Source: Aquitalea magnusonii
Lineage (GTDB): Bacteria > Pseudomonadota > Gammaproteobacteria > Burkholderiales > Chromobacteriaceae
DNA: 64,000 nucleotides
Direction: 5' to 3'
NCBI RefSeq assembly: GCF_002217795.2
Contig: NZ_AP018823.1
Span: 744,001-808,000, forward strand
The notes under the pieces are model-generated. The model had not been told where the DNA came from, searched no databases, and was given only the letters and a program-made list of their open reading frames with translations. Positions 28,822-53,778 of the stretch are shown piece after piece. The position numbers and the translations under genes were made by a program. Positions within the stretch are counted from its first letter, which is position 1. Each line of letters opens with the position of its first letter.

Positions 28822-31800
28822 TCAGGCGATATGCAGCGCGTTGTCGGTGGTGCTGTGGGACAAGCCAACCAGCGAAATGGTCGGCGCAGCCTCGCCCACC
28901 AAACCAGGGGTGGCGGCCACGGCACCCAGTGTCAGCGAGAAGGTTTCGCTGGCGGACAGGCCGGCCGTATCGGTGGCTTTCACCGTGATGATGGCCGATT
29001 CGGTCTGATGGCCCAGGGTGGCGGTAAAGCTGTCGTTCTGGGCATTGAAGGTGATCCAGCTCGGCAATGCCTGGCCGTTGGACTGGCTGGCACCGTAGGT
29101 CAGTGCCAGGCCTTGCGGATCGGTAAAGGTGCCTTGCGGCACGCTGATATTCAGCGTGCCATTGGCATTGAAACCGATCAGCAATGGCAGCGGGTTCACC
29201 ACCGGTGCCTTCAGTGCGGTGGCGATATCATTGATGGTGAAGGTTTCCGAAGTGGACAGCCCGACGCTGTCGGTCGCGGTAAGCTTGACCGAGAAGCTGC
29301 CGGCTGTGGTCGGAGCCGTACCGGAGAAGGTTTCGGTCTGGGCATTGAAGTTCAGCCAGGCAGGCAAAGCCTGACCATTGGCCAGTGCAGCCTTGTAGGT
29401 GAGCGCCAGCCCTTGCGGGTCGATAAAGGTGGTGGACGGCAGGGTAAAGCTGAAGGCCTTGCCGGCATTGATGGTTTGGGTGGCGGTTTGCTGGTTCAGC
29501 GTCGGGGCCACATAGGCATCGTTCAGAGTGAAGGTTTCCGAGGTGGACAAACCGGCCTGGTTGCTGGCGGTTACTTGCAGCGACAGCGAAGTATTAGCAG
29601 TCGGGGCGCTGCCGCTGAAGGTCTGGGTCTGGGCATTGAAGCTCAGCCAGGATGGCAGCGCGGCACCGCTGGCCAGCTTGGCGGTATAGCTCAGCGTTTC
29701 GCCTTGCGGGTCGGTAAAGGTGCCGGCGGGCAGGGCAAAACTGAACGTATGGCCCGGTGTCACCAGTTGGGTCGCCGTGGCCTTGCTCAGCGTCGGTGCG
29801 TAGGCGGTATCGCTGATGGTGAAGGTTTCCGAAGAGGACAGCCCGGCGGTGTCCGTCACCTTTACCATCACCTGGGTGCTGCTGCTGCCATACGGGGTGG
29901 TGCCGGACAGGGTATTGGTGCTGGCGTTGTAAGTCATCCACGACGGCAAGGCCTGACCATTGGCCTGGGTCACCTTGTAGCTCAGAGCCAGACCTTGCGG
30001 GTCGCTGAAGGCATTGGCCAGCGATACCGAGAAGGCATGGTTGGCGGCAAGGGTCTGGTTGGCGGTTTGCGCATTCAGGGTAGGGGCGACATAGGCATCG
30101 TTCAGGGTAAAGCTTTCCGATGCCGTGAGGCCGGCCTGATTGGTGGCCACCACTTGCACGGCTACCGATGTATTGGCCGTGGGCGCGGTGCCGCTGAAGG
30201 TTTGGTTTTGGGCATTGAAGCTGAGCCAGGACGGCAGTGCAGCGCCGCTGGCCAGCTTGGCGGTATAGCTCAGCGTTTCGCCTTGCGGGTCGGTAAAGGT
30301 GCCGGCGGGCAGGGCAAAGCTGAAGGCCCGACCCGGTGTCACCACTTGGGTGGCGGTGGCCTTGGCCAGGATAGGGGCCAAGGCGGTATCGGTGATGGAG
30401 AAGGTTTCGCTGGCGGACAGGCCGGAGGTGTCGGTGGCCGTCACCAGAATCTGGGTGCTGCTGCTGGTCACCGGTGTGGTGCCGGACAGGGTGTTGGTGC
30501 CGACGTTGTAAGTCATCCAGGACGGCAGCGCCTGACCATTGGCCTGGGTCACCTTGTAGCTCAGCGTCTGGTTTTGCGGGTCGGTAAACACATTGCCCAG
30601 CGACACCGAGAAGGCGTGGTTGGCGGCAACGGTCTGGTTGGCGGTCTGGGCGCTGATGACCGGTGCTTTCGGTACCAGCGGCACGGTGCCACCGGCATTG
30701 TCCACGGTAATGGTATCGCCAGCGGCCAGCAGGGTGGACAGGCTGACTTCAAAAGTGGTGTTCCAGTACTGGCCGGTCTGGCTACCCCAGGGATTGCGAA
30801 TCTGCAGATAGTCGTTGGCGGCATCAATGCCGTAAACCGACATGGCATGGCCGGCCACCAGTTGCACCTTGCCTGCGGCGTCGTAGCTCCAGGTATAGGA
30901 CGACAGCACCACATCATCACCGGCAGCCAGATGGGTTTTGAGCGAACTCAATACCGTGGCATTGCTCAGGCCGCTTTGCGAGCCGGTACCGGACAAGGAC
31001 GAGTTATAGGTACGGCACAGCCAACTGGTGCCGCTGCCGCTGTAGTCGGTGATTTGCGACGCACCGGTGATGGATTCCAGTGCATATTCCGGCAGACCGC
31101 CGTTGCCGATGGCGGTGAAGCTGTTGCCGCTATAGCTGTTACCGGTGGTGACATTGATGGCCTGCAGTTGGGCGTAGGCTTTTTCCAGCAAGGTGGCCCA
31201 CATATTGGGGCCGGAGTTGCAACCGGTTTGCAGCACATTGTTGACGGTAACGTATTCTGTCGCGCCCTTGACGTGGAAGGCCACGCCGTAACTGCCATTA
31301 CCGTTGTCGGTAATCATGTTCTTGATGATGCCGGCGTTCTTGACTGCCACCTCGGCAATCGACGCCAGGAAATAGCAGTCACCCAGTTTGCCCTGATTGA
31401 TGTCGCTGGCCAGCGGGCCGCTGCTGCCAAACAGCGAAGCAGTGCTGGTGGCGTAGCTAATCTTGGAGGTAGAGCCGCTGACAGTGACGGTTGAGGTGGG
31501 CAGGTCAGTGCCTTGCAGCCATTTGCCATTCAGGTTGCTCAGTTGGGCGGCGCTGGAGCCGACCGCCAGATTGCCCAGCGAACTGGAGCTGGCCGCCCCA
31601 CCGGTCCAGCTGCTGTTGGCAGCATTGCCGTTCACCAGCGCATTCAGGGTGTATTGGGAATAGGACGACGCCGTTTCACCAACATTCAGGTTGGTGACAA
31701 TGGTTTTCAGGTCGTTGAACTGGCTGGTGGACAGCGTGCTCTTGCTGCTGGTCAGTTCGGCGGCCAGATCGGTCACCATCTTGGCCAGGCCCGCTTCGGT

Positions 31801-32151
31801 CACGTTGCCGGACATGGCGTTCATGTCGGCTTTCAAGGCGGCATCGGTCAGCGTGGCAATCCAGCCGGGTGCAGTGGTGCTGCCGGTTTTTACGGTGGAA
31901 ATGCCCGTTGTTTGCGTGCTGCTGCCGGCCAGTGCAGCGCTGGATGCCTGCGTGCCGGCACTGACGATGGTGCTGCTCAGGCTCACCAGGGGCTGGGCCG
32001 AGCGCAGCATGGCCGCGGCTTGGGAAAGGGTGGCAAAGTCGCGCAAGGCACCAAGACTGATGCTGCTTAGCAATTCATCAGCAGCTTTCAAGCCGGAAAT
32101 ACTGTCCAGTTGACCATCTTGCTGGCGGGGGAGGGGATTGGAGGCGCTCAT
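28822..32151 (-). CDS. Calpain-like (C2 family) cysteine protease with six cadherin-like repeats
   Basis: 1109 residues. A Ser/Thr/Ala-rich N-terminal region without a Sec signal peptide is followed by a calpain-type catalytic domain. Cys259 lies in GKLGDCYFLAS, His435 in LVAGHAMSVYG and Asn453 in IRNPWGSQTGQYW. From residue 496 to about 1082 come six roughly 97-residue Ig/cadherin-like repeats (He_PIG or dystroglycan type: DPQGLALSYKV, ALPSWLSFNAQ, SETFTI). The last 27 residues end NALHIA. No RTX nonapeptides are present. Lack of a Sec signal and position opposite a type I secretion operon suggest export by that system. Its leader carries a c-di-GMP riboswitch. Secretion and activity are inference. 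Confidence 0.88.
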   Translation of the reverse strand: MSASNPLPRQQDGQLDSISGLKAADELLSSISLGALRDFATLSQAAAMLRSAQPLVSLSSTIVSAGTQASSAALAGSSTQTTGISTVKTGSTTAPGWIATLTDAALKADMNAMSGNVTEAGLAKMVTDLAAELTSSKSTLSTSQFNDLKTIVTNLNVGETASSYSQYTLNALVNGNAANSSWTGGAASSSSLGNLAVGSSAAQLSNLNGKWLQGTDLPTSTVTVSGSTSKISYATSTASLFGSSGPLASDINQGKLGDCYFLASIAEVAVKNAGIIKNMITDNGNGSYGVAFHVKGATEYVTVNNVLQTGCNSGPNMWATLLEKAYAQLQAINVTTGNSYSGNSFTAIGNGGLPEYALESITGASQITDYSGSGTSWLCRTYNSSLSGTGSQSGLSNATVLSSLKTHLAAGDDVVLSSYTWSYDAAGKVQLVAGHAMSVYGIDAANDYLQIRNPWGSQTGQYWNTTFEVSLSTLLAAGDTITVDNAGGTVPLVPKAPVISAQTANQTVAANHAFSVSLGNVFTDPQNQTLSYKVTQANGQALPSWMTYNVGTNTLSGTTPVTSSSTQILVTATDTSGLSASETFSITDTALAPILAKATATQVVTPGRAFSFALPAGTFTDPQGETLSYTAKLASGAALPSWLSFNAQNQTFSGTAPTANTSVAVQVVATNQAGLTASESFTLNDAYVAPTLNAQTANQTLAANHAFSVSLANAFSDPQGLALSYKVTQANGQALPSWMTYNASTNTLSGTTPYGSSSTQVMVKVTDTAGLSSSETFTISDTAYAPTLSKATATQLVTPGHTFSFALPAGTFTDPQGETLSYTAKLASGAALPSWLSFNAQTQTFSGSAPTANTSLSLQVTASNQAGLSTSETFTLNDAYVAPTLNQQTATQTINAGKAFSFTLPSTTFIDPQGLALTYKAALANGQALPAWLNFNAQTETFSGTAPTTAGSFSVKLTATDSVGLSTSETFTINDIATALKAPVVNPLPLLIGFNANGTLNISVPQGTFTDPQGLALTYGASQSNGQALPSWITFNAQNDSFTATLGHQTESAIITVKATDTAGLSASETFSLTLGAVAATPGLVGEAAPTISLVGLSHSTTDNALHIA
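28906..30666 (-). repeat. Six tandem cadherin-like repeats coding for the protease tail
   Basis: About 290-base units in the protease gene, each encoding an Ig-like domain. Units 1 and 3 share VAANHAFSVSL-type openings and LPSWMTYN; units 2 and 4 share VTPG-type openings and LPAGTFTDPQGETLSY. Repeats 1-4 therefore look like a duplicated pair (A-B-A-B), with units 5 and 6 more diverged. Confidence 0.85.
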
Positions 32152-32208: not shown

Positions 32209-32297
32209 GTTGCTGGCAACTGGCTGACATGGGGGCAAATGCCTCCGGTAGTCCCTTTAGTTTTGCGTCGCCGGTTTTCACCGGTTTTGCCTGTAAC
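32209..32297 (-). ncRNA. Cyclic-di-GMP-I (GEMM-I) riboswitch in the protease leader
   Basis: Read on the minus strand the element has the GEMM-I core in order. GGCAAA is at 32291-32286. A stem CCGGU / ACCGG is capped by a GAAA tetraloop. GACGCAAA is at 32269-32262. Then come GGGACUA, a second stem ending near GCCCCC, and finally AUGUCAGCCAGUUGCC, the conserved 3' side. GUUAC at the 5' end can pair with GCAAC at the 3' end. A -10 box lies about 7 bases upstream and the protease ATG about 57 bases downstream. Whether ligand turns expression on or off cannot be decided by eye. Confidence 0.87.
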
Positions 32298-32303
32298 GGT
32301 CTA

Positions 32304-41752: not shown

Positions 41753-41828
<76 letters not shown>

Positions 41829-41881: not shown

Positions 41882-41957
<76 letters not shown>

Positions 41958-44360: not shown

Positions 44361-44458
44361 GAGGACTCTCCAGTGAAGGTTTATGACATGCAAGTTTGCG
44401 GCCTGCATCGCCATTCTACCCAAATCGGCAGAACCCTCACCCAACAAGGAGGCCGGGC

Positions 44459-46708
44459 ATGAGCCAGGTCGAACTTAAAACACACTACAGCGCAGCTGAA
44501 CTGGCTTCGATGAAGTTGCCTGGACTGGCTGAAAGTAGACAAGGAATTGAATACACAGCCAAGCGACAAGGCTGGGATTTCATTGAAGAAAGTGGCAGGG
44601 GGCGTGGTGGTCTTGTCAAAAAATATACGTTGAGTGGCATGCCTGCTGACATGGTCAAGTCGATTCTTGCCCACATCGAGATGTCTGCACGGATTCAGAA
44701 ATTGCAGGATCCACAGAAAACCATCGTACCAGCATCTAGCCAGAAGGTACCTAGCACTCAAATAGGCTTACTAGACGCAGAAGAACGCCGCGAGTCCGAC
44801 CAGGCCGTGTTGCTGCAGCTGCCCAGCCTGACCGTTAAGCAGGTTGCCCGTTTTGAAGCCCGTCGCGCCGTTGTGATGGCCTGGTATGGCTTCCTGAAGC
44901 TGCGCGGCATGAAGCCGACCAATGCCCTGTATGAGGCATTTGTCAGCCACTTCAATGCCGGTCACCTGCAAGCCAACAAGGTGCAATACCCGGAGCTGGC
45001 CCTGGCCACGGCCGGTGTGGTCGACAGCATTGCCCTGCGCACCTTGCAGCTGTGGGTGTCGGACTACGAGAAAGCAGGCCTGGCCGCCTTCGTCGATGGC
45101 AATGACGGCGCGCACCGCAAGGGCAAATGCACGATCAGTGTGCAGAAGGATTTGCATGATTTCACCGTCGCCATGGTGGTGGCCAATCCGCATATCAAGC
45201 CGGTTCACCTGGAAGACGCTGCCAAGGCCCGCTTTGATGGCCATGCCTCTATCAAGGTGCCGAGTTACCACGCTTTCCGCCGCTTCCTGAACGAATGGAA
45301 GAAGCAGAACGCTGAGCTGTTCACCGCCATTGCCAACCCGGACCAGTGGAAGAACAGCTTCATGGTGGCGCAAGGCTCCTCCTCTGAAGACGTGCTGCGC
45401 ATGAATCAGCGCTGGGAGTTCGACTCCACACCGGCAGATCTGATGCTGGCCGATGGTCGCCACTGCCTGCTGGGCGTGATCGACGTATGGACCCGCCGCG
45501 CCAAGCTGCTGGTGGCCAAGTCCTCCCGCGCCGTGGGTGTTGGTGCCCTGGTGCGTGCTGCCCTGCTGGACTGGGGCAAGTGCGAAGAGGCGAAGACGGA
45601 CAACGGCCAGGAATACGTGGGCGTCTATGTCGATGACGTGTTCCGCGCCCTGGACATCGAGCAGACCAAGTGTCCGCCTTTCCAACCATGGCACAAGCCG
45701 CACATTGAGCATTTCTTCCACACCTTCAGCCACGACTTGCTTGAGCTGCTGCCGGGTTACATCGGCCACAACGTCGCTGACCGCAAGGCCATTGAAGCCC
45801 GCAAGGCCTTCAGTGAGCGTCTGTTCACCAAAAACGAGGTGGTGGACATGACGATGACTGCCGCTGAGCTGCAGGCCTTTTGTGATGACTGGCTGGTGCG
45901 CTACCACAACCGCGACCACGGTTCCCTGGATATGAGTCCTTTCCAGAAGGCCGCGTCCTGGACGGGTTCGGTGGAACGCATCGACAACCCGCGTTTGCTG
46001 GATGTCCTGCTGGCCGAACGCATCCAGCGCACGGTTCAGAAGAAGGGTTTGAAAATCGACGATGCCTGGTTCATCGCCCCGGAACTGGCCGTCAACCTGG
46101 TTGGCCGCGATGTCCAGGTGCGACTGGATCCGCTGGATCTGGGCCGTGTGTATGTCTTCCACGATGGCCAGTTTGTCTGCGTGGCCGAGTGCCCGGAGCG
46201 TACCGGTATGAATCGCCAGGAAGTCGCCCAGAAGGCCAAAAAGATGCAGGCCGCCGAGGTCAGCCGCCAGAAACGCGAACTCAAGGCCATGGCCCGCAAG
46301 GTCAATACCGATGACGTGGTGCAAGAGATCCTGCGCCACAACGCCGCCCAGGCCGGGACGCTGGTGGCCATGCCGAAGCTGGCCGTACCGGTCAACACCG
46401 CAGGCACTCGCGCTGCTGCAGCTGCCACCCATGCCGTGGATCGCGGCCTGAATGCCCAGATCCCGGCCGCCGTGCAGCGCCACCTTGGCCAGGCTACCCC
46501 GGCCCCGGTGATCAGCCTGCCGCAGAGCGACGAAACCAAGTTCCGCCAGTGGTTGGAACTGGATGCGATGGCCAAGCGTGGCCAGACGCTACCGGCAGAC
46601 AAGGTCAAGTTTTACGAGGGCTGGCAGAAAACCGCCCGTTTCCAAGTGCAGATGCAAAAGCACCTGCAACGCAATACGCAAGACGCTGCCCTCGCTGGCA
46701 ATCACTAA
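44459..46708 (+). CDS. Mu-type transposase A (DDE recombinase)
   Basis: 749 residues from the ATG at 44459 with AAGGAGG six bases upstream. An N-terminal Mu-type end-binding domain (YSAAELASMKLPGL...GWDFIEESGRGRGG) comes first. The rve catalytic core has Asp322 (FDSTPAD), Asp381 (KTDNGQEY) and Glu417 (PHIEHFFHTF), the D,D-35-E triad. A Mu C-terminal domain contacts MuB. It cuts and joins the phage ends in lysogenisation and replicative transposition. Followed by MuB. Confidence 0.96.
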   Translation: MSQVELKTHYSAAELASMKLPGLAESRQGIEYTAKRQGWDFIEESGRGRGGLVKKYTLSGMPADMVKSILAHIEMSARIQKLQDPQKTIVPASSQKVPSTQIGLLDAEERRESDQAVLLQLPSLTVKQVARFEARRAVVMAWYGFLKLRGMKPTNALYEAFVSHFNAGHLQANKVQYPELALATAGVVDSIALRTLQLWVSDYEKAGLAAFVDGNDGAHRKGKCTISVQKDLHDFTVAMVVANPHIKPVHLEDAAKARFDGHASIKVPSYHAFRRFLNEWKKQNAELFTAIANPDQWKNSFMVAQGSSSEDVLRMNQRWEFDSTPADLMLADGRHCLLGVIDVWTRRAKLLVAKSSRAVGVGALVRAALLDWGKCEEAKTDNGQEYVGVYVDDVFRALDIEQTKCPPFQPWHKPHIEHFFHTFSHDLLELLPGYIGHNVADRKAIEARKAFSERLFTKNEVVDMTMTAAELQAFCDDWLVRYHNRDHGSLDMSPFQKAASWTGSVERIDNPRLLDVLLAERIQRTVQKKGLKIDDAWFIAPELAVNLVGRDVQVRLDPLDLGRVYVFHDGQFVCVAECPERTGMNRQEVAQKAKKMQAAEVSRQKRELKAMARKVNTDDVVQEILRHNAAQAGTLVAMPKLAVPVNTAGTRAAAAATHAVDRGLNAQIPAAVQRHLGQATPAPVISLPQSDETKFRQWLELDAMAKRGQTLPADKVKFYEGWQKTARFQVQMQKHLQRNTQDAALAGNH

Positions 46709-46723: not shown

Positions 46724-47458
46724 ATGAGTCGCCCCGCCAACCAGACCGCTGACATCACGAATGTCGATCTGATGCACGCCACCACCCTGCGCCTGCTGGG
46801 CCGCCCGGCTGGTTCCGATGGTATGGCTGTGCTGTACGGTCCTTCCGGCTTCGGCAAAACCCAGGCAGCCACCCAGGCTTACCTCCGCCACAACGGCTAT
46901 TTCGTCCGCATGTCTGACCAGTGGACCTGCAAGACTTTCCTGCAAAAGATCCTGATCGAAATGGACATCCAGCCGGAGAAGACTGGCGCGGCCATGCTGG
47001 ACCAGGTCGCCCAGCAGCTGTCCGCCAGCAGCCGCCCGCTGATCATTGATGAAGCTGACTACGCCGCCGACAAGCCGCGCTTAGTGCAGTTGATCCGCGA
47101 CATCCACGACAACAGCTACAAGGCCAGCATCATCCTGGTAGGCGAAGAGGCCCTGCCGCAGAAGCTGGCCAAGTGGGAGCGCTTCCACTCCCGCGTGCTG
47201 GACTGGGTGCCTGCGCAACCGGTCAGCCTGGACGATGCCCGCAAGCTGGTGCCGATCTACTCCGAAGACATGCCGGTGGCCGATGACCTGCTGCAGCTGC
47301 TGGTCGACGAGGCACGCGGCTCCGTTCGCCGCGTGGGCAACAACCTCAACCTGATCCGTGAAGAAGGTCTGTCCGAAGGCTGGGATGTCGCCACCCTGGC
47401 CAACTGGGGCAATCGCACTCTGTACACCGGCAAGGCTCCGACCCGGAGGCTGCCGTAA
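46724..47458 (+). CDS. Mu-type transposition ATPase B
   Basis: 244 residues. AAA+ ATPase: Walker A GPSGFGKTQA, Walker B PLIIDEAD, sensor-like IILVGEEAL. MuB captures target DNA and activates the transposase. It is shorter than phage Mu B (about 310 residues) and lacks an obvious N-terminal DNA-binding helix-turn-helix. The stop overlaps the next start (TAATG). Confidence 0.94.
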   Translation: MSRPANQTADITNVDLMHATTLRLLGRPAGSDGMAVLYGPSGFGKTQAATQAYLRHNGYFVRMSDQWTCKTFLQKILIEMDIQPEKTGAAMLDQVAQQLSASSRPLIIDEADYAADKPRLVQLIRDIHDNSYKASIILVGEEALPQKLAKWERFHSRVLDWVPAQPVSLDDARKLVPIYSEDMPVADDLLQLLVDEARGSVRRVGNNLNLIREEGLSEGWDVATLANWGNRTLYTGKAPTRRLP

Positions 47459-51250: not shown

Positions 51251-51351
51251 GTAAGCCGACTGTTAGCAATTGGCGGCTTCTGATCCGCAACCTCAGAACC
51301 GGAAACATCCCTTTCAAGTAGTTTTTACAACGCAGTGCCAAGGAGAAAAGC

Positions 51352-51627
51352 ATGAACAAGCAAGAGCTGATCAAACACGTAGCCGAACACGCTGAAGTGA
51401 CTGCCAAGCAGGCCGAAGCCGTGATCAACAGCCTGACCACCACCATCCTGGACACCGTCCGTGCCGGTGGTGAGCTGCAAATCACTGACTTGGGCAAGTT
51501 CGGCAGTGTGGAGCATGCCGCCAAGACCGGCCGCAACCCCAAGACCGGCGAAACCATCCAGATTGCAGCCAAGCGTGCCGCCAAGTTCTCCCCAGCCAAG
51601 CGTCTGAAAGAGGCTGCAGCAGGCTAA
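51352..51627 (+). CDS. HU family DNA-binding protein
   Basis: 91 residues with CAAGGAG upstream. MNKQELIKHVAEHAEVTAKQAE and the beta-arm part (FGSVEHAAKTGRNPKTGETI) are clear HU. Phage Mu needs host HU for transposome assembly, so a phage copy could supply this. Its stop codon lies only five bases before the first hammerhead ribozyme. Confidence 0.95.
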   Translation: MNKQELIKHVAEHAEVTAKQAEAVINSLTTTILDTVRAGGELQITDLGKFGSVEHAAKTGRNPKTGETIQIAAKRAAKFSPAKRLKEAAAG

Positions 51628-51631
51628 CCCG

Positions 51632-51688
51632 TGCGAAACCGTCCGCAAGGGCGGTCTGTCTGGCGTGGTGGCCAGGCACTGATGAGCA
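51632..51688 (+). ncRNA. Type II hammerhead ribozyme, copy 1
   Basis: All core positions are present. GAAA is at 51635-51638. Stem III is ACCGUCC / GGGCGGU around a GCAA tetraloop. The cleavage triplet GUC ends at C51656. Stem I is UGUCUGGC / GCCAGGCA with loop GUGGUG. CUGAUGA is at 51679-51685. Stem II is the open stem: GCA (51686-51688) pairs with UGC (51632-51634), three base pairs. Cleavage is predicted between 51656 and 51657. Compared with copy 2, stems I and III carry compensatory changes (for example U61-A74 versus A31-U44), so pairing is conserved rather than sequence. Confidence 0.88.
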
Positions 51689-51729
51689 GCCAGATCCGTT
51701 GCGCTGGTCAAGTCGTGACAGGAATGTAA

Positions 51730-51792
51730 ATGCAGTCCAGCCAATTCGGATGGACACAATTACGAGACCCCAAACATGACAAAGCGCTTTAG
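51730..51792 (+). CDS. Possible 20-codon leader peptide overlapping the bracketed gene
   Basis: ATG at 51730, six bases after an AGGA site that is better than any in front of the 72-codon gene. It encodes MQSSQFGWTQLRDPKHDKAL and stops at 51792, 17 bases inside that gene. It could couple translation or be chance. Confidence 0.3.
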   Translation: MQSSQFGWTQLRDPKHDKAL

Positions 51793-51994
51793 AAAAACCG
51801 GCCTACTACTGCACTTCGAACACTATCAGCATGAGCCAGGTGTATGGATGCCAAAAGGGTTAATAGAAGACCCCAGGACCGGAGAAACATCTCCAGTTGC
51901 TGTTAAAGGCTGGTGCTACTCAGAGGAAGAGGCTGACAGGTGTGTACAGGCACTAGCTACCTACCGAATCAGAAATGGCATCTGGCGAAATTAA
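51776..51994 (+). CDS. Unknown 72-residue protein bracketed by hammerhead ribozymes
   Basis: 72 residues, basic at both ends (MTKRFRKTG, YRIRNGIWRN) with an acidic centre and two cysteines. No signal peptide or membrane helix. No family recognised. PKGLIEDPRTGETSPVAVKGWCYSEEEADRCVQAL suggests a small compact fold. There is no strong ribosome site directly upstream. It is the only coding unit between the two ribozyme cleavage sites, so its mRNA segment would be excised from the early transcript. Confidence 0.65.
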   Translation: MTKRFRKTGLLLHFEHYQHEPGVWMPKGLIEDPRTGETSPVAVKGWCYSEEEADRCVQALATYRIRNGIWRN

Positions 51995-52002
51995 GTATTA
52001 CC

Positions 52003-52057
52003 GCGAAACCGCCTGCAAGGGCGGTCTGCCAAGCGTGGTTGCTTGGTACTGATGAGC
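52003..52057 (+). ncRNA. Type II hammerhead ribozyme, copy 2
   Basis: GAAA is at 52005-52008. Stem III is ACCGCCU / GGGCGGU with a GCAA loop. GUC ends at C52026. Stem I is UGCCAAGC / GCUUGGUA with loop GUGGUU. CUGAUGA is at 52049-52055. Stem II is only two pairs (GC / GC). Predicted cleavage is between 52026 and 52027, 45 bases before the ATG of the DUF2786 gene. The ribosome site of that gene (AGGA) directly follows the ribozyme. Confidence 0.88.
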
Positions 52058-52070
52058 AGCCGAGGAAAAC

Positions 52071-52754
52071 ATGGACAAGCAAACCGCAATTGAAAAAATC
52101 AGGAAATGTCTGGCTCTTGCCAAGAGTGCCAACGAACACGAAGCCGCAGCCGCGCTGCGCCAGGCACAGGCACTGATGCGCAAGTACGGGGTTGAGGATG
52201 GCGACATCCTGATGGCCGAGGTAAGCGAAGCCAAGGTGAAAGCTGGTGCCAGAACCAAGCCTGTGAAGTGGGAAAGCCAGCTGTCCACCACGGTGGCCAC
52301 CGCCTTTGGCTGCCGCAAGATTTTTGTCCAGGAATTGAAAGCAGGCTACTGGACGTTTATCGGCTGCGGCCCGGCAGCAGAGATAGCCACTTATGCCTAC
52401 ACCGTGCTGATGCGCCAGCTGCGCAAAGCCCGCAGTGAGTACCAGCAGACCCACTGTAAACGCCTTGTTCCGGCTAGTCGGACTCGCCGCGCCGATCTGT
52501 TCTGCGAAGCCTGGGTGGCTGGCGTTCGTCGCCAGATTGAGGCCTTTGCAGGCACGCAAGCCAACGAAGAAGCACTGGAGGTCTACATGGCCAAGGAATA
52601 CCCGGACCTTGGCACCTTGGTTCCCAGGGATCGCCAGGCAGGCAAGAGTCTTCGCGATGGTGATGTGAATGCACGGGCAGCAGGTTGGCATGCTGGTCGT
52701 CAGGCGCAGCTGAACCATGGCGTGGACAACAAACCGCTGGCCATCGGCCAATAG
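52071..52754 (+). CDS. DUF2786 family phage protein
   Basis: 227 residues. The N-terminal AIEKIRKCLALAKSANEHEAAAALRQAQALMRKYGV is the DUF2786 signature. The following part (FCEAWVAGVRRQIEAF) is also conserved in phage members. Function unknown. Its ribosome site lies immediately after the second hammerhead, so cleavage could change its translation or mRNA stability. Confidence 0.9.
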   Translation: MDKQTAIEKIRKCLALAKSANEHEAAAALRQAQALMRKYGVEDGDILMAEVSEAKVKAGARTKPVKWESQLSTTVATAFGCRKIFVQELKAGYWTFIGCGPAAEIATYAYTVLMRQLRKARSEYQQTHCKRLVPASRTRRADLFCEAWVAGVRRQIEAFAGTQANEEALEVYMAKEYPDLGTLVPRDRQAGKSLRDGDVNARAAGWHAGRQAQLNHGVDNKPLAIGQ

Positions 52755-52765
52755 AACCCGGTGTC

Positions 52766-52785
52766 GAGCCTGTTAACGCAGGCTC
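52766..52785 (+). other. Hairpin after the DUF2786 gene
   Basis: GAGCCTG / CAGGCTC with loop TTAACG, 11 bases after the stop. No T run. It may protect a 3' end or be part of the larger structure that follows. Confidence 0.5.
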
Positions 52786-52802
52786 CGCAACGTGTTTTAA
52801 CC

Positions 52803-52890
52803 CTCAATGCAGCCGTGACCGGCCAGCCCCGATCAACTAGCGGGTGCCGTCCTCTGATAAGCCGGCATGGCCGGTCACGCGTGCATTGAG
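52803..52890 (+). other. Unidentified multi-stem structured element upstream of gemA
   Basis: The outer stem is CTCAATGCA / TGCATTGAG (9 pairs), then a small internal loop, then GTGACCGGCCA / TGGCCGGTCAC (11 pairs). Inside are two hairpins, CCCG / CGGG with a 9-base loop and TGCCG / CGGCA with a 13-base loop. The loops contain AUCA and UGAU, which could pair with each other. It ends 20 bases before the gemA ATG. It matches no ribozyme or riboswitch family I can recall. Confidence 0.7.
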
Positions 52891-52909
52891 TTTGACCAGG
52901 AGAAGAACA

Positions 52910-53326
52910 ATGACCGACAGACGCAAGGCGATGATCGCAAAGATCAAGATCGCCCAGCAGCAGCTGCAGATGGCTGACGACAGCTACCGCGCCATGCTGG
53001 CACGCCTGGCTGATGGCAAAACCAGCAGCACAAAGCTGACCCTGCAGCAGCTGGATGACGTGCTTGCCGAAATGAAACGCCTGGGCTTTGTGCAAAAGCC
53101 TGCGCAAAAGCATGGCCGCCGTCCGCAGCCGAAGGACTCCCGTGAGACCCTGATGGCCAAGATTGAGGCACAACTGGCCACCGCTGGCCGGTCGTGGGAA
53201 TACGCCCAGGGCATGGCAAAACGCATGTATCGGATCGAAAAAATAGAATGGCTGGACTACGAGCAGCTGAATGGGGTGATGGTCGCCCTTGTCTATGACG
53301 CACGCCGGAATGGGAGGCCCGCATGA
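52910..53326 (+). CDS. gemA: GemA family phage regulatory protein (Mu gp16, DUF1018)
   Basis: 138 residues from the ATG at 52910 with CAGGAG upstream. KIKIAQQQLQMADDSYRAMLARLADGKTSSTKLTLQQLDDVLAEMKRLGF is the GemA/gp16 domain. In Mu it modulates host gene expression and supercoiling. It overlaps mor by four bases. Confidence 0.93.
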   Translation: MTDRRKAMIAKIKIAQQQLQMADDSYRAMLARLADGKTSSTKLTLQQLDDVLAEMKRLGFVQKPAQKHGRRPQPKDSRETLMAKIEAQLATAGRSWEYAQGMAKRMYRIEKIEWLDYEQLNGVMVALVYDARRNGRPA

Positions 53327-53778
53327 ACCGCAGTGACCACGAAATGGCAATGGCCCGTGCTGCACACCTGTTGCCAGAAAATGCCCGCCAGCTCGTTGAT
53401 ATGCTGACGCTGGCTACCACGCTGAAACTGGTAGATGCCTATGGTGGCACACACTTCCCGATCCCGAAAACCGCCAGGCAGGAGGGACAATATTTTGCAG
53501 CACTGGCGGAGGCCGTGGGGGTCGATGCTGCCAATAAGCTGGTAAAGAGGTACGGCAATACCCGACTGTATGTGCCAAAGTGCGCTGCAGCACTGCGCGC
53601 CCTACGTGATGCCAGTATTCGTGCTGACTATGACATGTCATGCGGTGAGTTGGGGCACAACGCCACGGTCAACAATGTGCTTGTACCCAAGTACAGACTT
53701 TGTGACCGTAGGATTGAGGAAATTTTGTCTAAGGCGGATGAGCTATTGCCAGTCGCAACTCAAGGAAGTCTCTTTTAG
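53323..53778 (+). CDS. mor: Mor-like middle transcription activator
   Basis: 151 residues. Mor/C family: an N-terminal dimerisation part (LVDMLTLATTLKLVDAYGGTHFPIPK) and a C-terminal helix-turn-helix (ADYDMSCGELGHNATVNNVLVPKYRLCDRRIEEIL). It should switch on the middle or late promoters. No separate C activator is seen in the window, so Mor may control lysis and head genes directly. A strong terminator follows. Confidence 0.9.
   Translation: MNRSDHEMAMARAAHLLPENARQLVDMLTLATTLKLVDAYGGTHFPIPKTARQEGQYFAALAEAVGVDAANKLVKRYGNTRLYVPKCAAALRALRDASIRADYDMSCGELGHNATVNNVLVPKYRLCDRRIEEILSKADELLPVATQGSLF

What the first reader, a model, noticed from the sequence alone, without database searches (positions are those of the whole stretch)
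51632..52057. Tandem type II hammerhead ribozymes precisely bracket an unknown 72-codon phage gene
Both copies have every core element in order: GAAA, a stem III with GCAA loop, GUC, an 8-pair stem I, CUGAUGA and an open stem II. Their stems differ by compensatory changes: stem I UGUCUGGC/GCCAGGCA versus UGCCAAGC/GCUUGGUA, and stem III U-G to C-G. So RNA structure, not DNA sequence, is conserved. They sit in the two intergenic gaps on either side of one gene in the early operon of a Mu-like prophage. Self-cleavage at 51656/51657 and 52026/52027 would cut out a 370-nt mRNA. Hammerheads are known in phages, but I know of no described operon in which a pair excises one gene.
Basis: partly seen in the sequence, partly recalled or inferred. 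Interest (0 to 1): 0.92.

Follow-up and report, generated by a model that had tools for sequence, protein, structure and literature searches.

The report
Paired self-cutting RNAs flank phage gene
A Mu-like prophage carries two self-cutting hammerhead RNAs on either side of one small gene, so its messenger RNA probably cuts itself into single-gene pieces; this layout was reported in prophages before, and here it turns up in many related phages, often with a tight spacing.

Summary
Rfam scores both sites as type II hammerheads (71.3 and 66.8 bits); a dedicated scan finds only these two in the window and none in 20 shuffled windows. Cutting at 51656/51657 and 52026/52027 would release a 370-nt RNA with a 72-codon ORF that has no detected sequence relative but a confident predicted fold.

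The novelty claim does not hold: Perreault et al. 2011 (PMC3088659) already report hammerheads flanking single genes in prophages, with tandem cleavage in vitro.

Added here: (1) Of 80 loci chosen by the neighbouring DUF2786 gene, 37 carry 58 hammerheads, all sense strand with intact GAAA and CUGANGA; 21 carry a pair. (2) Spacing there: 0 nt after the stop codon in 22 of 22 classed downstream cases, 13 nt before DUF2786 in 14 of 20 upstream cases; looser in a wider set. (3) A sister prophage has one hammerhead and lacks the gene. (4) D3112-like phages carry the hammerhead before different genes.

Best reading: intergenic self-cleavage units that split the early transcript. New member of a known kind; activity and function untested.

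The parts
51352..51627 (+). HU-type DNA-binding protein gene, cistron upstream of hammerhead 1
   Evidence: PF00216, E 1.8e-29
51631..51695 (+). Type II hammerhead 1: stem II GC 51633-51634 / 51686-51687, GAAA 51635-51638, stem III 51638-51655, C17 at 51656, stem I 51657-51678, CUGAUGA 51679-51685, pseudoknot tail GCCA 51689-51692
   Evidence: Rfam RF02276 71.3 bits; alignment and pair counts
51656..51657 (+). Predicted cleavage site 1 (after GUC)
   Evidence: Position in the hammerhead fold; cleavage not tested
51657..52026 (+). Predicted excised 370-nt RNA
   Evidence: Distance between predicted cleavage sites; inference
51730..51792 (+). 20-codon ORF with AGGA at 51720-51723, overlapping the start of the 72-codon ORF (possible leader peptide)
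   Evidence: Translation, sequence; role inferred only
51776..51994 (+). Bracketed 72-codon orphan gene
   Evidence: No Pfam, PHROG or PADLOC hit; no homologue in the protein search; AlphaFold2 single-sequence mean pLDDT 90.6 against 54.0 for one overlapping out-of-frame control ORF
52001..52065 (+). Type II hammerhead 2: stem II 52003-52004 / 52056-52057, stem III 52008-52025, C17 at 52026, stem I 52027-52048, CUGAUGA 52049-52055, pseudoknot tail GCCG 52059-52062
   Evidence: Rfam RF02276 66.8 bits
52026..52027 (+). Predicted cleavage site 2
   Evidence: cleavage not tested
52062..52066 (+). Shine-Dalgarno-like GAGGA meeting the pseudoknot tail; start codon 13 nt after stem II
   Evidence: Sequence; spacing in relatives
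52071..52754 (+). DUF2786/DUF7168 gene (phrog_421), cistron downstream of hammerhead 2
   Evidence: PF23771 E 9.1e-35, PF10979 E 6.3e-15
44396..46708 (+). MuA-like transposase (start codon uncertain)
   Evidence: PF09299, PF02316, rve
46724..47458 (+). MuB-like transposition protein
   Evidence: phrog_296, AAA_22
52844..53326 (+). GemA (Mu gp16) homologue (start codon uncertain)
   Evidence: PF06252 E 4.8e-26
53323..53778 (+). Mor-like transcription activator
   Evidence: PF08765, phrog_836

Best explanation
The two type II hammerheads are intergenic self-cleavage units in the polycistronic early transcript of a Mu-like prophage. As the transcript is made, each folds and cuts after its GUC, separating the HU mRNA, a 370-nt RNA with the 72-codon ORF, and the message that begins with DUF2786. 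Each cut leaves the upstream message with a 3' hairpin (stem III, by hammerhead chemistry with a 2',3'-cyclic phosphate) close behind its stop codon, and the downstream message with a 5'-hydroxyl hairpin (stem I) and, at hammerhead 2, a ribosome-binding site just past the ribozyme. The likely benefit is independent, end-protected messages in an operon whose genes are gained and lost. Shown by sequence: the motif, its RNA-level conservation, its position, and the gene's presence or absence. Inferred: co-transcription, cleavage in vivo, end protection and benefit.
For: Rfam scores. Covariation in 40 diverse members including the loop I-tail pseudoknot (98.3% of cells paired, 15 of 21 pairs with two-sided change, 0 of 500 shuffles). 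In a set chosen by DUF2786 and not by the ribozyme: 58 hammerheads in 37 of 80 loci, 58 of 58 on the sense strand, none with an E-value between 1.9e-11 and the limit of 1; 58 of 58 with intact GAAA and CUGANGA (the cleavage dinucleotide was not counted). Position there: 0 nt between stop codon and hammerhead in 22 of 22 classed downstream cases, 13 nt to the start of the DUF2786 match in 14 of 20 upstream cases; pairs in 21 of 80 loci, 17 distinct. Wider pattern-found set: 0 nt after the stop in 85 of 139. Published precedent: tandem prophage hammerheads cleave in vitro, one set also in E. coli; consensus-conforming hammerheads were active in 14 of 18 tests (PMC3088659).
Against: No RNA data were available. 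A pseudoknot-free energy model prefers other folds (copy 2 -25.7 against -23.7 kcal/mol, copy 1 -27.2 against -26.2), and the centroid fold of the 5' fragment after cut 2 is unstructured. No hammerhead was found in 43 of 80 DUF2786 loci nor in the stretches fetched from phage B3 and Curvibacter phage TJ1, so it is dispensable. Start spacing is loose in the wider set: 13 nt in 28 of 132, 12-19 nt in 73 of 132 (automatic start choice). In this window hammerhead 1 is 88 nt from the 72-codon start. The family is uncommon beyond close kin: 15 of 61 family genomes but 5 of 369 class genomes, 3 over the cut-off, the window's own included.
Confidence: 0.62

Rival explanations
1. The hammerheads matter mainly as shared DNA linkers: recombination in or next to them swaps or inserts early genes, and self-cleavage is incidental.
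For: Homology between the window and relatives ends at hammerhead edges: sister prophage L026 aligns to 51262-51691 and 52003-52753 but not 51692-52002; L220 aligns up to 51691 and then carries another gene; L029 and L216 align from 52001 on with a different gene directly upstream. JBD24 and D3112/JBD30 agree up to GAGCAGCC and then differ. Counted by families of homologous flanks, 17 of 21 hammerhead junctions show a downstream swap against 91 of 207 control gene ends, and 18 of 23 against 83 of 232 show an upstream swap; by locus pairs the upstream swap is 392 of 543 against 812 of 2500.
Against: Covariation shows selection on RNA pairing; GAAA and CUGANGA are intact in 58 of 58. By locus pairs the downstream swap rate does not exceed that of other gene ends (175 of 292 against 2910 of 4693). 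Controls are automatic ORF ends and crude.
Confidence: 0.15
2. The excised 370-nt RNA is circularised, by reverse ligation of the hammerhead halves at its ends or by a host ligase, as in viroid-like RNAs and retrozymes, and acts as a circular messenger.
For: Its 5' end has stem I, CUGAUGA and the 3' strand of stem II, and its 3' end has the 5' strand of stem II, GAAA and stem III, so the two ends could rebuild a full hammerhead (sequence).
Against: PMC3088659 says spliced or circular products could not be detected for its tandem cases. No reverse transcriptase among the 16 prophage ORFs scanned.
Confidence: 0.05
3. The ribozymes are regulated switches: ribosomes finishing at the abutting stop or starting 13 nt downstream, or an alternative fold, block cleavage, so cutting reports translation of the operon.
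For: Abutting stop codons and the common 13-nt start spacing put core strands inside expected ribosome footprints (footprint size recalled); hammerhead 2 has an alternative fold of similar energy.
Against: Nothing here shows regulation; the spacing may only reflect compact packing, and it is looser in the wider set.
Confidence: 0.12

Closest known systems
Clustered prophage hammerheads of Perreault et al. 2011 (PMC3088659; passages and part of the Discussion seen)
   Same: Hammerheads flanking single genes or short gene blocks in prophages; [quoted passage not shown]
   Different: The passages seen name no Mu-like early operon, no DUF2786 and no stop-abutting rule; a 13-nt distance to a start codon is mentioned there for the variant of haloviruses HF1/HF2
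Mu-like-phage gene association of hammerhead and twister ribozymes (as summarised in PMC10085705, passages seen; the underlying papers were not seen)
   Same: Strongest gene associations are with Mu-like phage genes, and ribozymes cluster
   Different: That summary gives no gene-by-gene layout
Retrozymes and viroid-like RNAs with tandem hammerheads (PMC7761336, passages seen)
   Same: Hammerheads bound RNAs of a few hundred nucleotides
   Different: Those are type I or III motifs in eukaryotic elements that give circular RNA; here type II, around a coding gene, in a phage operon, no circle known
D3112-like Pseudomonas phages
   Same: Type II hammerhead directly after the stop of the orf16 homologue in JBD24, D3112 and JBD30, before DUF2786 (JBD24) or another gene
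   Different: One hammerhead each in the three stretches examined; others, such as MP22, were seen only as search rows

Membership tests
Type II hammerhead ribozyme (RF02276) | Covariance-model score above the gathering score | tested here: met
   71.3 and 66.8 bits against 37
Type II hammerhead ribozyme (RF02276) | Conserved core GAAA, CUGANGA and a UH cleavage dinucleotide; stems I and III closed, stem II open | tested here: met
Type II hammerhead ribozyme (RF02276) | Loop I to 3' tail pseudoknot (common, not universal) | tested here: met
   Four pairs possible in both copies; 96.9% of cells paired in 40 sequences
Type II hammerhead ribozyme (RF02276) | Self-cleavage activity | not testable with these tools
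   Needs in vitro transcription
Clustered prophage hammerheads (Perreault 2011) | Two or more hammerheads flanking a gene inside a prophage | tested here: met
Mu-like transposable phage early region | MuA- and MuB-type transposition genes, GemA and Mor on one strand in this order | tested here: met
Retrozyme or viroid-like circular RNA | Circular RNA product | not testable with these tools
   No RNA data
CV_2116 fold family (72-codon protein) | Similar fold | tested here: inconclusive

The most novel reading that the evidence does not exclude
In Mu-like phages the type II hammerhead is a portable cistron separator: a gene joins the early operon as a [gene + hammerhead] cassette whose ribozyme fills the space from stop codon to ribosome-binding site, so any inserted gene gains its own mRNA ends by self-cleavage, and recombination between hammerheads adds, removes or swaps cassettes.
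Probability: 0.25. Interest if true: 0.72.

Novelty: new member of a known kind. Interest (0 to 1): 0.42.

Why it matters
Why phages keep hammerheads is open; PMC10085705 says the biological reason for the association is still unknown (passage). A recurrent layout between stop codon and ribosome-binding site, a natural with/without pair of prophages in one genome, and the element's presence in D3112-like laboratory phages make that question directly testable.

Tried and rejected

Selection and dropped rows. One search kept the best 80 of 294 relatives from a capped scan. 23 of 232 loci gave no hammerhead by my finder; 42 of 209 were then dropped because the first hammerhead with 60-base flanks was identical to another, leaving 167, of which 35 hold two; near-duplicates remain. 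In one search only flanking genes in families of three or more members were counted. Of the 58 hammerheads, 42 were classed as adjacent to DUF2786 and 16 were not; duplicates were not removed (48 distinct). My finder missed the Shewanella phage hammerhead that Rfam found.

Corrected on checking: the share of pair loci with a predicted ORF between the hammerheads is 34 of 35, not 33; the looser start spacing, the fold doubts for both copies and the counts are now stated.

Full report
What is there. The window is G000:C1:744001-808000 of a 4.85-Mb genome. From about 44.4 kb a Mu-like prophage runs on the + strand: MuA-like transposase, MuB-like ATPase, an RsaL-type HTH regulator, DUF3164, HU, a 72-codon ORF, DUF2786/DUF7168, GemA and Mor, with small unknown ORFs between. 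At gathering thresholds Rfam finds two type II hammerheads, one after HU and one after the 72-codon ORF, and no other ribozyme in the window. A finder requiring the core and three stems gives these two hits only and none in 20 shuffled windows.

RNA-level conservation. I aligned 40 diverse type II hammerheads, two from the window and 38 from related loci, and counted pairs for the hammerhead fold plus the loop I-tail pseudoknot: 98.3% of 833 cells pair, 15 of 21 pairs have changes on both sides, no shuffle of 500 reaches this and the slid controls fall to 29-48%. Most of the 40 come from a pattern scan that fixes part of loop I and the core, so the free evidence is stem III and the middle of stem I, which vary most.

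A set chosen without the ribozyme. I fetched 80 viral-contig loci by the DUF2786 protein (the best 80 of 294) and searched them with a covariance model. It found 58 hammerheads in 37 of 80 loci, all on the sense strand, with no match between E 1.9e-11 and 1. All 58 keep GAAA and CUGANGA. 21 of 80 loci hold a pair (17 distinct). Among loci found by pattern or in related genomes, 35 of 167 left after removal of exact duplicates hold a pair; in 34 of these 35 the automatic ORF picker finds at least one ORF between the hammerheads, often DUF2786 itself or a short unknown gene. All 46 two-hammerhead loci before de-duplication have both copies on one strand.

Layout. Around DUF2786 the hammerhead directly follows the stop codon with 0 nt between in 22 of 22 classed downstream cases, and ends 13 nt before the start of the DUF2786 match in 14 of 20 upstream cases (16 of the 58 not classed). 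In the wider set the stop-to-hammerhead gap is 0 nt in 85 of 139, but the start spacing is looser: 13 nt is commonest (28 of 132) and 12-19 nt covers 73 of 132, with starts chosen automatically. In the window hammerhead 2 has exactly 13 nt, and its pseudoknot tail meets the GAGGA ribosome-binding site. Hammerhead 1 does not fit: the 72-codon ORF starts 88 nt on, behind a possible 20-codon leader ORF.

With and without the gene. The same genome holds a sister prophage (L026; by sequence the 2234318 locus) with HU, one hammerhead and DUF2786. Its DNA matches the window at 51262-51691 (95.3%) and 52003-52753 (93.5%) and lacks 51692-52002. Thus [72-codon gene + one hammerhead] is a presence/absence unit; which state is older is not known. 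Other relatives keep the upstream side and change the downstream gene at the hammerhead (L220) or the reverse (L029, L216). JBD24 and D3112/JBD30 share orf16 and, but for a few bases, the hammerhead, then carry different genes. 123 of 50,697 phage records, some of them GenBank/RefSeq duplicates, match the 101-base JBD24 hammerhead region. A control shows that gene ends in these mosaic phages often swap anyway: by locus pairs 175 of 292 at hammerheads against 2910 of 4693 elsewhere for downstream swaps, 392 of 543 against 812 of 2500 for upstream swaps; by families 17 of 21 against 91 of 207, and 18 of 23 against 83 of 232. I therefore do not claim that the hammerhead causes exchange.

The bracketed gene. 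It has no relative in the protein collection, in the other 60 of 61 family genomes or in viral contigs beyond one identical copy that is probably this prophage's own record. Its interval is 48.2% GC against 58.1% for the operon, which would fit a recent arrival. AlphaFold2 on the single sequence gives mean pLDDT 90.6, against 54.0 for one overlapping out-of-frame ORF, which supports a real protein. The fold is beta strands with one C-terminal helix, nearest to the prophage protein CV_2116; function unknown.

Mechanism. The likeliest account is cotranscriptional self-cleavage that splits the early message. Predicted fragment ends: stem III ends one base before each new 3' end; stem I starts at the first base of each new 5' end in the minimum-energy folds, although the centroid fold of the second 5' fragment is unstructured. 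Such ends in general protect RNA from exonucleases and from 5'-end-dependent RNase E (established knowledge, recalled). Doubts: no RNA data; pseudoknot-free optima are not the hammerhead fold; many relatives lack the element; the family is rare in the class at large (5 of 369 genomes; 15 of 61 in the family).

Against the literature. PMC3088659 (passages and part of the Discussion) already describes prophage hammerheads flanking single genes, shows tandem cleavage in vitro and one case in E. coli, and mentions a 13-nt distance to a start codon for the HF1/HF2 hammerhead. PMC10085705 (passages) reports the Mu-like association and clustering, with the reason unknown. In the listings of my searches I saw no paper that announces the stop-abutting layout or the hammerhead of D3112-like phages; those searches cover open-licence papers only and most listed papers were not opened. 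The finding is a new member of a known kind, with a sharper layout and tractable test systems.

Noticed in passing
window 32212-32301 (-): c-di-GMP-I riboswitch (64.2 bits) 60 bases upstream of a 1109-aa ORF (28822-32151, -) that looks by eye like a calpain-like peptidase with surface-protein repeats (naming not tested).
   Followed up: partly
window 41756-41828 and 41885-41957 (-): Two tandem tRNA genes with identical printed sequence, 56 bases apart, about 2.4 kb before the transposase ORF.
   Followed up: no
   Followed up: partly
window 52751-52844: A stretch between DUF2786 and GemA where homology blocks with six of the eight compared relatives start: another module joint, without a hammerhead.
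   Followed up: no
L234:3156-3232 (Shewanella phage MuM16-2): Rfam hammerhead (59 bits) at the DUF2786 stop in a phage of an environmental host, missed by my finder: a possible bench system.
   Followed up: no
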